A stretch of DNA of 64,000 bases from Falsibacillus albus. Lineage in GTDB: Bacteria; Bacillota; Bacilli; Bacillales; DSM-25281. The notes beneath the pieces are model-generated. The model was not told the origin of the DNA and made no database searches. It saw only the letters and a program-made list of their open reading frames with translations. This document shows, piece by piece, positions 1,671 to 62,693 of this stretch (position 1 is its first letter; every line of letters begins with the position of its first letter). The position numbers and the translations under genes are program-made. The DNA is taken from positions 186,001 through 250,000 of the forward strand of contig NZ_RCVZ01000001.1 of NCBI RefSeq assembly GCF_003668575.1, given 5' to 3'.

Positions 1671-1822
1671 AGAATAGCGGATTTGTAAAAGATGGTTGTT
1701 TATCACACTTTTGCGATGAATATTTCTTAAAGACGTTGATTTCCGCGGAAGGTGCGAGACTCCCTCTGTGGAAATCAACTTTACCTATTTTATGATGGGC
1801 AACAAACTTACAAAAAAGAGTC
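1671..1822 (-). mobile_element. MITE-like element, internally deleted copy (copy 1)
   Basis: The right end (1797-1822), read on the minus strand as GACTCTTTTTTGTAAGTTTG, matches the terminal repeat of the family defined by the copy at 54861-55216. The left end near 1673-1700 (GTAAAAGATGGTTGTT) is a diverged partner. Between them sits a collapsed core, 1730-1787, bounded by GTTGATTTCC and GGAAATCAAC. The copy starts only a few bases behind the thrS stop codon. No clean target duplication is visible because both flanks are A-rich. Confidence 0.6.
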
Positions 1823-3361: not shown

Positions 3362-3710
3362 CGCTCTATTCGTAAAGTAAGTTGCTAATCATAAAAATTG
3401 TGCAAGGTTGATTTCCACTGCAGGATGCTTGCTTTCCCAGGGGGCGGGGCACAAGAAGTGAGGCCGATCGATATTGGCACAGGACGAAGAACTCTTAGGC
3501 GGAGACACATCACCCTAGAACAATGCCTGGCTTTTTCGATGAGGTGACTAACTTAATCGAACATCCGCCTTTATCTCTTTGCTCCGCTGCGTGGTCTCAC
3601 CTGATTCGCTAATCCCTCGGGAGTCTCGCACCTTCCGCTCCAATCACCCTCACATGACTAATTTTTGTGAAGAAAAACCGTTAAAAGCAGCATTCTTTGC
3701 GAAAACAGCC
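3362..3710 (+). mobile_element. MITE-like element, long form (copy 2)
   Basis: About 350 bp with ends CGCTCTATTCGTAAAG at 3362 and, on the minus strand, GGCTGTTTTCGCAAAG at 3710. Inside are the family's inner landmarks: GTTGATTTCC near 3407, the CTTTCC..GGGG block, ATCGAACATCCGCC, and GAGTCTCGCACCTTCCGCTC near 3620-3642. No open frame encodes a transposase, so it would be non-autonomous. It lies between the rplT terminator and a second element, and fills most of the 619-bp gap before ysdA. Confidence 0.75.
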
Positions 3711-3718
3711 TGACAGAA

Positions 3719-3901
3719 GGCTCTTTTCCCATACATTGTTGCTTGAGCTAATAAAGTAGGATGGTTTAAGCAAAGTTTCAACTTCAAAATAGCGTATATA
3801 GGGGGAAAAGAGCTGGATAACTTTATTTTAACGAATTAAATAGCTATTATTACGTTAAAATCGGCATTAGGATTTTAACAACAATTTTTACGAAAACAGC
3901 C
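3719..3901 (+). mobile_element. MITE-like element, short form without the usual core (copy 3)
   Basis: 183 bp bounded by GGCTCTTTTCCCATACATTG (3719 on) and, on the minus strand, GGCTGTTTTCGTAAAAATTG (ending 3901), the same terminal repeats as the longer copies but with an unrelated AT-rich interior. Flanking 8-mers TGACAGAA (3711-3718) and TAATAGAA (3902-3909) differ at two transition positions and could be a decayed target duplication. It ends about 10 bp before the ysdA ribosome binding site, so the ysdA promoter must lie in or before the element. Confidence 0.7.
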
Positions 3902-4197: not shown

Positions 4198-4231
4198 ATG
4201 CGAGAAACCATGTATAAGGTGTAATGAGGGC

Positions 4232-4834
4232 ATGAAGGGGCTTGGAGAGCGGGTGAGTCAATTGAACGAAAAGCTTGCATTGCTGTTTTCTTTTGTTGAA
4301 TCAGGCGGAATCTTTGCTCCAGTAATCTTTATTTTGTTCCATATACTTAGACAGTTCTTATTCATCCCCGTGGCGGTCGTATGCATGGCGGGCGGAATTC
4401 TTTTTGGAAGCCTGCTTGGAACGATCTATTCGCTGATTGGGCTGTTCCTTTTGTCTTGTTTATTTTATTTCTGTATTCATAAAATGCCCAGAACATACAA
4501 AAAACTCCTTCAGATCAAGCAGAAATGGTTTGGACATCATGCCAAGCTAACCGTTGGCCAAATTGCCATCCTTAAAATGGTTCCATTCTTTCATTATCAT
4601 TTACTCAATCTGTGCCTTATGGAGCGCAAGCCAAATTTCAGGGATTATGCAAAAAGTACGTTTTTTTCAAACATTCCCCTTGCTTTTTTTTATACGGTTT
4701 TTGGTGAATTCATCACACGGTTCACACCAAGTATGGTGGTCATGATCTTGCTTTCAATGTCAGTGCTGTTTTATTTGCTCAGGGAGAAAGTGGTCACAAT
4801 GACATGGAGGGAGTTTTTTCGTTCCGAATCATAA
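4232..4834 (+). CDS. TVP38/TMEM64 (VTT domain) membrane protein, YtxB-like
   Basis: Polytopic inner-membrane protein of the VTT/DedA-related superfamily, whose members are linked to membrane lipid transport; no specific role can be given. The VTT core is visible at about residues 40-150: a hydrophobic run with RQFLFIPVAVVCMAGGILFG, a second helix pair, then GQIAILKMVPFFHYHLLNL and FSNIPLAFFYTVFGEF. The C-terminus is a final helix and a short basic tail. The start is uncertain. ATG 4232 has GAGGG almost touching it, while GTG 4253 and TTG 4262 in the same frame have GGAGAG and GGGTGA upstream. The gene follows ysdA by 34 bp in the same direction. B. subtilis has a relative (YtxB) in the thrS neighbourhood; orthology is not established. 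Confidence 0.75.
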   Translation: MKGLGERVSQLNEKLALLFSFVESGGIFAPVIFILFHILRQFLFIPVAVVCMAGGILFGSLLGTIYSLIGLFLLSCLFYFCIHKMPRTYKKLLQIKQKWFGHHAKLTVGQIAILKMVPFFHYHLLNLCLMERKPNFRDYAKSTFFSNIPLAFFYTVFGEFITRFTPSMVVMILLSMSVLFYLLREKVVTMTWREFFRSES

Positions 4835-4857
4835 ATGATGGCAGTGTTGAAAAATAA

Positions 4858-4955
4858 GACTCTTTTCGTAATGTTTGTTGCTATTCATCAATACTTCTAT
4901 AAGGTTGATTTCCGCTGCAGGATGCTCGCTTTCCGAGGGGCGGGCAGTGAGCCGG
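4858..4955 (+). mobile_element. Truncated MITE-like element, left half only (copy 4)
   Basis: Begins GACTCTTTTCGTAATG at 4858, continues through TTTGTTGCTATTCATC and GTTGATTTCCGCTGCAGG (4903-4920), and reaches CTTTCCGAGGGGCGGGCAGTGAGCC, matching the left half of the copy at 37799. It then stops abruptly and the expected right half is nowhere in the next kilobase. The break leads straight into the hairpin, G-run and minisatellite at 4964-5830. Confidence 0.75.
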
Positions 4956-37768: not shown

Positions 37769-38202
37769 GGCTGTTTTCGAGAAGATTGTTTTTTTCTTCG
37801 CTCTTTTCGTAAAGTTTATTGCTATTGGACAAAGGTTGTGTAAGGTTGATTTCCGCTGCAGGTTGCTCGCTTTCCAAGTGGCGTGCTGTGAGCCTCCTCG
37901 CTTCGTGGGGTCTCACCTGTCTAGATCCAGGCCAGAGCTTAGGGGATCGGTCATAAGCCCCTAGTCAAAGCCCTGCAGCTTTTCCAACCTGCGCGCTGAT
38001 CCCTCAAGAGTCTCACACCTTGCGTTCAAATCAACAATAATTTTCAGGAAAAACTGTTCTAAACAACAATCTTTGAGAAAAGAGTCTTTTTCTTTTATCA
38101 GTGAGAATTATTCATAAGGTCATTAATTGGAGTAAGCATATTTTCGAGTAATCAACTTTATTTTTTTTATGGATAATTGCAACCAACTTTAAGAAAGCAG
38201 CC
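37769..38202 (+). mobile_element. Outer MITE-like element carrying a nested copy (copy 9)
   Basis: GGCTGTTTTCGAGAAGATTG at 37769-37788 and, on the minus strand, GGCTGCTTTCTTAAAGTTGG ending at 38202 are a pair of family ends. They enclose the complete copy at 37799-38086. The flanking bases show no target duplication, so the outer pair could also be remains of two separate elements. Confidence 0.5.
37799..38086 (+). mobile_element. MITE-like element with exact 8-bp target duplication (copy 10)
   Basis: A 288-bp element with ends CGCTCTTTTCGTAAAGTTTA (37799 on) and, on the minus strand, GACTCTTTTCTCAAAGATTG (ending 38086). TTTTTCTT occurs on both sides, at 37791-37798 and 38087-38094. The interior has GTTGATTTCCGCTGCAGG, CTTTCCAAGTGGCGTGCTG, a nested hairpin block (37919-37985) and AATCAACAATA. 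It carries no gene. Confidence 0.85.
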
Positions 38203-41657: not shown

Positions 41658-42266
41658 ATGGGAAAGCAAGTGATTATCGCTACAAAAAATAAAGGGAAAG
41701 CGAAAGAATTTGTGAGCATGTTCTCCCCTTATGGAATTGAAGTGAAAACATTATTGGATATCCCGAATGCTCCGGATGTGGAAGAAACAGGGACAACCTT
41801 CAAAGAGAATGCAATTCTTAAAGCTGAAACGATCTCAGGGGAAATGAATACAATTGTAATTGCGGATGACTCAGGCCTTGCCATTGACGCGTTGGAAGGA
41901 AGGCCAGGGGTTTATTCGGCCAGGTATGCAGGCGAAGAAAAGAATGATGAAGCCAATATGGATAAAGTCCTTATGGAGTTGAAGGATATACCCGGCGAGG
42001 ATAGAACGGCTCGATTCCATTGTGCACTTGCTGTTGCAGTACCAGGAGAAGAAACGATTACAGTCGAAGGTACATGCGACGGGCATATTCTTTTTGAGCG
42101 CCAAGGGACAAATGGATTTGGCTATGATCCAATCTTTTTTGTAAAGGAACAAGGCAAATCGATGGCAGAGCTTTCTTCGTCAGAAAAAAATAAAATCAGC
42201 CATCGAGCAAAAGCTTTGCAGCAATTGAAGGATAGGATCGATACCATCATAGTTAAAGGGGAATAA
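41658..42266 (+). CDS. rdgB: Non-canonical purine NTP pyrophosphatase (RdgB/HAM1, YsnA)
   Basis: Hydrolyses ITP, dITP and XTP to the monophosphates, keeping deaminated purines out of DNA and RNA. Family motifs are present: [14 protein letters not shown] at the N-terminus, [16 protein letters not shown] near 40-55, [25 protein letters not shown] near 67-91, and [13 protein letters not shown] plus [11 protein letters not shown] at the C-terminus. The start is ATG 41658, one base after the rph stop, behind AAAGGTGA which lies in the end of rph; 202 residues. The in-frame codons upstream are inside rph and not part of the protein. Confidence 0.95.
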
Positions 42267-42268
42267 AA

Positions 42269-42778
42269 ATGAAATTATTAGTGGTAAGTGACAGCCACGG
42301 CTCTTCTGGTATTCTGGAGGATTTAAAAAGACGGTACGCTCAAAAGGTGGATGGCATGTTTCACTGCGGTGATTCAGAGCTTTCCCCTGATGATCCCGCA
42401 ATTACAGGATTCAAGGTCGTGAAAGGGAACTGTGATTATGGGCCAGGCTTTCCGGAGGAATCGCTGGAAGTCATCGACAATGAAAAAATCTTTGTCACCC
42501 ACGGCCACCTTTTCGGAATCAAAATGTCTTTAAATAAATTGTTCTACCATGCGAAAGAACAGGAAGCGGATTTTGTGTTTTTCGGTCATTCACATTTAGT
42601 AGGCGCTGAGATGATAGAGAACATCCTTTTTTTAAATCCTGGAAGCACCCTTCTTCCAAGAGGAAGAAATGAAGCGACGTATGCTATTGTAGAAAAAGAA
42701 AACAACCGCATAACCGTGAAAATTTTTGAAGACACCCATGAGGAAATGGTCGATTTGAGAATGGAATTTACGATATAA
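42269..42778 (+). CDS. ysnB: YfcE/MJ0936-type metallophosphoesterase YsnB
   Basis: Small calcineurin-like phosphoesterase; phosphodiesterase activity is known for relatives, but the physiological substrate is not. Metal-binding blocks are visible in 169 residues: VVSDSHGSSG near 5-14, FHCGDSEL near 31-38, VKGNCDYGPGFP near 51-62, VTHGHLFGIK near 75-84 and FFGHSHLVGAEM near 102-113. The ATG follows AAAGGGGAATAAAA two bases after the rdgB stop, so it is translationally linked to rph and rdgB. A hairpin without T-tail (42794-42831) follows. Confidence 0.92.
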   Translation: MKLLVVSDSHGSSGILEDLKRRYAQKVDGMFHCGDSELSPDDPAITGFKVVKGNCDYGPGFPEESLEVIDNEKIFVTHGHLFGIKMSLNKLFYHAKEQEADFVFFGHSHLVGAEMIENILFLNPGSTLLPRGRNEATYAIVEKENNRITVKIFEDTHEEMVDLRMEFTI

Positions 42779-54818: not shown

Positions 54819-54823
54819 CAAAC

Positions 54824-54857
54824 AAAAGAGGAAGCGATGATCCGCTTCCTCTTTTAT
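54824..54857. terminator. Terminator of the amino-acid ABC operon
   Basis: AAAAGAGGAAGCG (54824-54836) pairs perfectly with CGCTTCCTCTTTT (54843-54855). A MITE-like element is inserted right behind it, and its target duplication TTTATTTA takes in the T-tail. Confidence 0.93.
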
Positions 54858-54860
54858 TTA

Positions 54861-55216
54861 GGCTCTTTTTCGTAAAGTTTGTTGCTATTTATCAAGGTTT
54901 GGACAATGTTGATTTCCGCTGCAGGCTGCTCGCTTTCCGAGGGGCCTCACACCAAGTGAGGTCGTTCGATGTTGGCACATGGATGTGCCGAACTTAATCG
55001 AACATCCGCCCTACATCTCCTCGCTTTGCGGGGTCTCGCCTGTCTAGCTCCAGGGCTTAGGGGCTCGAGGTCATAAGCCCCTATGCAAAGCCCTGCAGCT
55101 TTTCCAAATGGCCCGCTGATCCCTCCGGAGTTTCGCACCTTACGCTCCAATCAACATCCTATGATGAATTTTTATTAAAATAACTATAAAAAACAACAAT
55201 CTTTGAGAAAACAGCC
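54861..55216 (+). mobile_element. MITE-like element, best full copy with exact 8-bp duplication (copy 12)
   Basis: A 356-bp element. Ends are GGCTCTTTTTCGTAAAGTTT (54861 on) and, on the minus strand, GGCTGTTTTCTCAAAGATTG (ending 55216), about 23 bp of imperfect inverted repeat. TTTATTTA flanks it at 54853-54860 and 55217-55224. Inner inverted edges are GTTGATTTCC (54908) and CAATCAAC (55149-55156). The interior includes a GTTCGATGTTGGCACA..TGTGCCGAACTTAATCGAAC inverted block and a nested hairpin (55041-55105). No gene, so it would need a transposase in trans. Confidence 0.9.
55041..55105. repeat. Nested hairpin block inside the MITE-like element
   Basis: TGTCTAGCTCC is followed by two concentric perfect stems: AGGGCTT (55052-55058) with AAGCCCT (55088-55094), and GGGGCT (55060-55065) with AGCCCC (55076-55081). 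The same block occurs in the copy at 37919-37985 and is missing at the matching place in the copies at 36387 and 62428, so it behaves as a separate unit. Confidence 0.75.
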
Positions 55217-55329
55217 TTTATTTATATCCTGTTCAGATAATAGTAATAAGAGAAAATATGTTTCAGCATACACTGGAAAAATTCGTTATATACAAATGGG
55301 GTTTTACTTCAGTAAATCGATAAGCTGAT

Positions 55330-62427: not shown

Positions 62428-62693
62428 TGCCAATTTTTAATAAGATTGTTGTTTTGAGCGGTATTTAAACAAAATAATTTGTTGTTGATTGAAGCGGAAG
62501 GTGCGAGACTCCGGAGGGATCAGCGGGCAGGGGGAGACCCCGCAGCGAAGCGAGGAGAGGTTGGACAGATGTTCGATTAAGTTCGGCACATCCGTGTGCC
62601 AACATCGAACGACCTCACTTCGTGTGAGGCCCCTCGGAAAGCGAGCATCCTGCAGCGGAAATCAACCTTGCACAACTTTTGAAGAAAGCTGTC
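62428..62693 (-). mobile_element. MITE-like element, minus orientation (copy 14)
   Basis: Core landmarks in reverse order: GTTGATTGAAGCGGAAGGTG (62483 on), GAGACTCCGGAGGGATCAGCG, GGAGACCCCGCAGCGAAGCG, ATGTTCGATTAAGTTCGGCACA, TGTGCCAACATCGAAC and CATCCTGCAGCGGAAATCAAC ending near 62675. Ends are diverged: TGCCAATTTTTAATAAGATTG at 62428 and GAAGAAAGCTGTC to 62693. It begins inside the T-tail of the hemL terminator and fills most of the 422-bp gap before spoVID. Confidence 0.75.

What the first reader, a model, noticed from the sequence alone, without database searches (positions are those of the whole stretch)
54853..55224. MITE-like family proven by terminal inverted repeats and an exact 8-bp target duplication
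The 356-bp block 54861-55216 has about 23-bp imperfect terminal inverted repeats (GGCTSTTTTxxxxAAAGWTTGTTG) and is flanked by TTTATTTA on both sides. Related ends or cores recur at 1671, 3362, 3719, 4858, 13717, 20586, 24212, 36387, 37799, 43021, 55330 and 62428. The set is about thirteen copies in 64 kb, ranging from 95 bp with only the ends to 356 bp. None carries a gene. This is the signature of a non-autonomous transposon still recognisable in several decay states. Scattered extragenic repeats are known in Bacillus; I cannot say if this family has been described.
Basis: partly seen in the sequence, partly recalled or inferred. Interest (0 to 1): 0.65.

Follow-up and report, generated by a model that had tools for sequence, protein, structure and literature searches.

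The report
Transposase-less jumping DNA with RNA cargo
This 356-base block is one of a few hundred short, gene-free "hitch-hiking" transposons in this bacterium; their ends match those of complete IS1595-type transposons found in other Bacillales, and many copies carry a piece that databases list as a separate RNA of unknown function.

Summary
Window 54861-55216 has 23/24-bp terminal inverted repeats and an exact 8-bp target duplication (TTTATTTA). The genome holds 292 such ends (reversed-pattern control 0). Of 40 paired elements, 19 have a 7/8 or 8/8 duplication, against 2.9% of random pairings. In sister Rossellomorea genomes, MITEs with the same ends sit where the sister has the unoccupied site.

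The missing partner was found in other genomes: IS1595-family transposons of 1.6-2.0 kb (PF12762/NF033547) with the same ends, four of four with perfect 8-bp duplications, carrying passenger genes besides the transposase. ISL3 and IS6, also 8-bp families, were tested; their ends do not match. This genome has no detectable transposase of any of the three families, so the window copies are orphan MITEs. The end pattern occurs in 231 of 397 sampled genomes of the order (97 of 135 genera), up to 532 sites per genome.

The interior is a mosaic. About 120 copies per genome (extrapolated) carry Rfam's orphan Bacillaceae-1 RNA (RF01690); 18 of 19 sampled lie inside this repeat. This suggests RF01690 is transposon cargo, at least here. 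No sign of post-insertion selection on the RNA fold was found.

The parts
54853..54860 (.). target-site duplication, left copy (TTTATTTA), directly behind the intrinsic terminator of the upstream ABC-transporter gene
   Evidence: duplication statistics
54861..54884 (+). left terminal inverted repeat GGCTCTTTTTCGTAAAGTTTGTTG
54861..55216 (+). whole MITE, 356 bp, no gene
54907..54945 (+). core, left half (TTGATTTCCGC... module)
54946..55013 (-). Bacillaceae-1 RNA module (RF01690)
   Evidence: 44.8 bits, gathering score 35;
55041..55108 (+). optional hairpin module, absent from about half of the aligned copies
   Evidence: occupancy 8 of 15
55109..55157 (+). core, right half (...CGCTCCAATCAACA)
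55194..55216 (-). right terminal inverted repeat GGCTGTTTTCTCAAAGATTGTTG; with 5 more bases identical to the distal end of the autonomous IS1595 elements in G253 and G248
55217..55224 (.). target-site duplication, right copy (TTTATTTA)
37799..38086 (+). second copy with exact 8-bp duplication TTTTTCTT
3719..3901 (+). 183-bp copy of another subfamily with the same ends, without the core, directly beside the copy 3362-3710
3362..3710 (+). copy with both ends, duplication not recognisable
1676..1822 (-). degenerate 147-bp copy, 7/8 duplication
62442..62670 (-). core remnant with a second Bacillaceae-1 module (62561-62628, + strand), ends decayed

Best explanation
The block is a MITE: gene-free DNA held between the end sequences of an IS1595-family transposon. 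An IS1595-type DDE transposase supplied in trans recognises the GGCTSTTTTCKYAAAGWTTGTTG ends and inserts the element at A+T-rich intergenic sites, making an 8-bp duplication. Shown: ends, duplications, copy number, empty sites for MITEs with the same ends, and IS1595-family elements with the same ends and the same duplication length in other genomes. Inferred: the trans-mobilisation itself, and that such a transposase was once present in this lineage, since none is detectable now. The interior is a mosaic of modules, including the Rfam Bacillaceae-1 RNA, gained and lost between the ends; I read these as passengers amplified by transposition.
For: 292 ends versus 0 in the control; 8-bp duplications far above random pairing; unoccupied sites in a 92%-identical sister genome, one exact with 98% identical flanks; window copy absent at the orthologous locus of G001 and R. 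aquimaris JM7. Four elements with a full or broken IS1595 transposase between the same ends, all with 8/8 duplications: G253 L199:1245-3124 ATAATTAA, G248 L200:1328-3098 TTGACTAA, G063 L211:1676-3300 AAAAATAA, G068 L227:1140-3148 TAATATAA; transposases are NF033547/PF12762. Shuffled control: one end-like site at 5 or fewer mismatches in 95 kb. The window's right end equals the autonomous distal end over 28 nt. Transposases with these ends form one group (at least 62% identical); IS1595 transposases without them are about 40-47% identical to it.
Against: No IS1595 transposase in this genome or its congener, so the partner is known only from other genera, and mobility is inferred from sequence. 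The clean empty sites concern core-less MITEs with the same ends in Rossellomorea, not the window copy; at the window locus the relatives are too distant to align the exact site. Many copies are too decayed to show a duplication.
Confidence: 0.92

Rival explanations
1. The MITE was mobilised by an ISL3-family transposase (ends beginning GGCTCT, 8-bp A+T-rich duplications).
For: Start of the ends and duplication length resemble ISL3 (ISL3 loci in the order show ends such as GGCTCTAAAATATATGTTGG with 8-bp duplications).
Against: No PF01610 match in this genome or its congener; none of 30 ISL3 loci in the order has ends like the MITE's bracketing the transposase, whereas IS1595 elements match over all 23 positions of the pattern.
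Confidence: 0.02
2. The MITE was mobilised by an IS6-family transposase (ends beginning GGTTCTG..GCAAA, 8-bp duplications).
For: Partial similarity of ends (GG-TCT-TT...AAAG) and equal duplication length.
Against: No PF13610 match in this genome or congener; IS6 loci in the order end in GGTTCTGGTGCAAA....
Confidence: 0.01
3. The repeat is retained mainly for the host: core and Bacillaceae-1 act as an RNA or transcript-end element, and the transposon ends are only the historical means of spread.
For: Core and Bacillaceae-1 are better conserved (pairwise identity 0.72-0.91) than the ends (about 0.5) in the same set; the Bacillaceae-1 fold is kept although many pairs differ on both sides from the Rfam consensus; none of 17 classified elements lies between divergent genes.
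Against: Among 15 copies no pair has a compensatory change and covariation does not exceed shuffles, as expected of repeats drifting after a recent spread. End conservation is understated because several copies in the set have lost or different ends. No Bacillaceae-1 match in 755 kb of related genomes, several of which carry the same MITE ends.
Confidence: 0.12
4. Bacillaceae-1 plus core is a separate mobile or recombining unit that was captured by several different terminal frames.
For: Some Bacillaceae-1 copies lie between other ends (GGCTYTGTTAAACA...; L022:9452, L005) or without recognisable ends.
Against: No duplication or ends of its own could be defined for the core; decay of the outer ends explains some cases.
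Confidence: 0.35

Closest known systems
IS1595 family insertion sequences (Siguier et al. 2009; features taken from PMC8101967 and PMC12561309)
   Same: ends starting with GG, 8-bp A+T-rich duplications, mostly intergenic insertion; the autonomous relatives found here carry Zn_ribbon_IS1595 and DDE_Tnp_IS1595
   Different: the window element has no transposase; the autonomous relatives carry passenger genes; which IS1595 subgroup they belong to could not be tested
Bacterial MITEs in general
   Same: short, gene-free, inverted ends, duplications, high copy, related autonomous elements elsewhere
   Different: mosaic interior with an Rfam-listed structured RNA module; no partner transposase left in the genome; the same ends across most sampled genera of an order
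bcr1-bcr18 repeats of the Bacillus cereus group (PMC6542083)
   Same: 100-400-bp interspersed intergenic repeats of Bacillales, tens to about a hundred copies
   Different: [quoted passage not shown] here GG-terminated inverted ends and 8-bp duplications with varying sequence. bcr sequences were not at hand for comparison
Bacillaceae-1 RNA, RF01690 (Weinberg et al. 2010, PMC2864571)
   Same: module 54946-55013 matches the Rfam model above its gathering score
   Different: listed there as a candidate RNA of Bacillaceae, probably not cis-regulatory; here it is a module inside a transposable repeat

Membership tests
MITE | terminal inverted repeats on a short element without a transposase gene | tested here: met
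MITE | target-site duplication of constant length | tested here: met
   8 bp; 19 of 40 at 7-8/8 versus 2.9% by random pairing
MITE | insertion polymorphism / empty sites | tested here: met
   for MITEs with the same ends in R. vietnamensis; for the window copy only absence at the orthologous locus
MITE | autonomous element with the same ends | tested here: met
   four IS1595-family elements in other genera
IS1595-derived | cognate transposase with DDE_Tnp_IS1595 and zinc ribbon | tested here: met
   PF12762 2.7e-18 and 2.8e-17, PF12760 (one above, one just below cut-off), NF033547 3.4e-63 and 1.3e-61, in other genomes
IS1595-derived | cognate transposase in the same genome | tested here: not met
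   no NF033547 match in G000 or G001; not a requirement for origin
IS1595-derived | mobilisation in trans by that transposase | not testable with these tools
   needs an assay
ISL3-derived | ends equal to those of an ISL3 element | tested here: not met
IS6-derived | ends equal to those of an IS6 element | tested here: not met
Bacillaceae-1 RNA (RF01690) | covariance-model score above gathering threshold | tested here: met
   44.8 and 48.9 bits versus 35 in the window; up to 58.6 in other copies
Bacillaceae-1 RNA (RF01690) | expression as a small RNA | not testable with these tools
   no transcript data
bcr repeats | sequence identity to bcr1-18 | not tested
   consensus sequences not at hand

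The most novel reading that the evidence does not exclude
Rfam's orphan Bacillaceae-1 RNA is not an ordinary ncRNA gene family but a structured cargo module of mosaic MITEs mobilised by one clade of passenger-carrying IS1595 transposons, whose ends occur throughout the order, often in genomes with no detectable transposase of this family.
Probability: 0.5. Interest if true: 0.58.

Novelty: new member of a known kind. Interest (0 to 1): 0.5.

Why it matters
It names the likely transposase behind a very abundant class of intergenic repeats in Bacillales: the ends occur in 97 of 135 sampled genera, at up to 532 sites per genome. It offers a concrete alternative reading of an orphan Rfam RNA, and it shows a high-copy MITE persisting without a detectable transposase. 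The trans-mobilisation test is simple. No paper linking these ends or RF01690 to IS1595 was found in the open-access library searched; ISfinder and subscription literature could not be checked.

Tried and rejected
ISL3 and IS6 as autonomous partner: absent from the genome, and ends do not match. First end pattern with a 4-base spacer: wrong register, near control level; replaced by the 3-base spacer. Preference for intrinsic-terminator T-tracts, suggested by eye and true of this copy: 6 of 19 elements versus 13% of matched intergenic controls in this genome (p = 0.03), 4 of 17 versus 17% in the Rossellomorea set (not significant), so not claimed. RNA-level selection on Bacillaceae-1 copies: no covariation. 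A fuzzy-regex scan timed out and was replaced by mismatch counting.

Full report
Observation. The block 54861-55216 has 24/23-nt imperfect terminal inverted repeats and TTTATTTA on both sides. Within the genome (G000, 4.49 Mb, window = C1:186001-250000) the corrected end pattern GCTSTTTTCKYAAAGWTTGTTG occurs 292 times at 3 or fewer mismatches; the reversed pattern occurs 0 times. In 850 kb of the genome I found 91 clusters of similarity to the element (about 60 kb of it was chosen because it held copies), which scales to several hundred in the genome. In 40 elements with two ends (35 from G000) the flanks match at 8 of 8 positions in 11 and at 7 of 8 in 8; pairing left and right flanks at random gives 0.5% and 2.4%. 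The 8-bp duplication is thus a property of the family.

Empty sites. Rossellomorea genomes carry the same ends. In the R. vietnamensis pair G005/G006 (92% identical), a 189-bp element flanked by TATACAAA in G005 corresponds to a single TATACAAA in G006 with 98% identical flanks. A 192-bp element in G005 (94% flanks) and a 166-bp element in G006 (89% flanks), each with a 7/8 duplication, also face unoccupied sites. These are MITEs with the same ends but without the core. For the window copy, the orthologous intergenic space in the same-genus genome G001 (about 77% identical) and in R. aquimaris JM7 (about 72%) lacks the element; identity is too low to align the exact site.

The autonomous partner. 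ISL3 and IS6, both with 8-bp duplications and partly similar ends, were considered first. Neither is detectable in this genome or its congener, and their ends in the order differ. A scan of 397 genomes of the order for the end pattern (2 or fewer mismatches) found it in 231, across 97 of 135 genera, up to 532 sites in one genome, with 0-1 control matches per strand; single matches in a genome may be chance. Two places had facing ends 1.8-1.9 kb apart. Both hold an IS1595-family transposase (335/336 aa; NF033547 3.4e-63 and 1.3e-61; PF12762 2.7e-18 and 2.8e-17) and exact 8-bp duplications. Two more turned up, one with a broken transposase. Decayed relatives in G036 and G383 also lie between such ends with 8/8 and 7/8 duplications.

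Ends and transposase belong together. The distal end of G253 and G248 is identical to the window's right end over 28 nt, beyond the inverted repeat. One end of the decayed G383 copy equals the MITE's usual left end (GGCTCTTTTCGTAAAGTTTGTTGCT). Transposases with these ends are at least 62% identical to one another and about 40-47% identical to the IS1595 transposases tested that lack them. The elements also carry other genes: an HTH-type regulator with a small membrane protein (G253), a 2'-5' RNA ligase-like protein (G248, PF13563), an alpha/beta-hydrolase-like protein (G068, named from sequence only) and an unknown protein (G063). The literature gives 8-bp duplications and zinc-ribbon/DDE transposases as features of the IS1595 family and terminal GG for the related Merlin elements (PMC8101967), and A+T-rich, mostly intergenic 8-bp sites for ISApl4, whose IRs also start with GG (PMC12561309).

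Orphan state. No IS1595 transposase is detected in G000 or G001, nor in several genomes with over 200 MITE ends (G030, G034, G136, G371). Either the transposase was lost after amplification or it visits transiently; the data do not decide.

Interior. The window copy is a mosaic: outer frame, core halves, Bacillaceae-1 module, an optional hairpin module, and in some copies a further insert of about 60 bp at position 119/121. Rfam finds two Bacillaceae-1 matches in the window and fifteen in 146 kb of chosen loci of this genome, one of which (L001) is the window copy again. In a 724-kb sample, a model made from those copies finds 19, of which 18 lie in this repeat's clusters; the model was trained on such copies, so this is not fully independent. 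It finds none in 755 kb of G001-G006. Rfam finds one in 107 kb of Rossellomorea and other-genus loci, 0.4 kb from a perfect end. Of 16 distinct copies examined in this genome, 9 have recognisable ends on both sides within about 400 bp. The module is well conserved (mean pairwise identity 0.905) but shows no compensatory change among copies, so no selection on its fold after insertion is visible. Relative to the Rfam consensus, many pairs are changed with pairing kept.

Position. All 19 elements of this genome with 7-8/8 duplications lie outside ORFs of 150 aa or more, although 75% of the sampled DNA is in such ORFs; none of the 17 classified lies between divergent genes. This fits purging of harmful insertions, A+T-rich target preference, or both.

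Verdict. The additions are the IS1595 partner, the orphan state, the order-wide spread of the ends, and the Bacillaceae-1 cargo. The kind of object is known; the family and its link to RF01690 were not found in the papers searched, which cover open-access papers only.

Noticed in passing
L199:1245-3124, L200:1328-3098, L211:1676-3300, L227:1140-3148: Four related IS1595 elements each carry different passenger genes (HTH regulator plus membrane protein; 2'-5' RNA ligase-like; unknown protein; alpha/beta-hydrolase-like) beside the transposase.
   Followed up: partly
window 54820-54860 and other copies: Several copies sit directly on the T-tract of an intrinsic terminator (about 30% versus 13% of matched controls in this genome, p = 0.03; not significant in the Rossellomorea set).
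   Followed up: partly
L022:9452-9924, L024:12666, L011:9487: A second terminal frame (GGCTYTGTTAAACA...) carries the same kind of core, so the core is shared by more than one repeat family.
   Followed up: no
window 3362-3901 and 37769-38086: Copies lie side by side, 8 bp apart at 3710/3719 and with an extra end at 37769, suggesting insertion of one MITE beside another's end.
   Followed up: no
G005/G006 joined stretches, about 4209-4880 and 41909-42424: Tandem repeat arrays (about 52-bp units in the first) that differ between the two R. vietnamensis genomes.
   Followed up: no
L162, L164-L166 (weak PF13610 matches): A high-copy transposase family of about 490 aa with ends GGTAGTGTCAAAAG and 8-bp duplications appears in several genomes of the order.
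   Followed up: no
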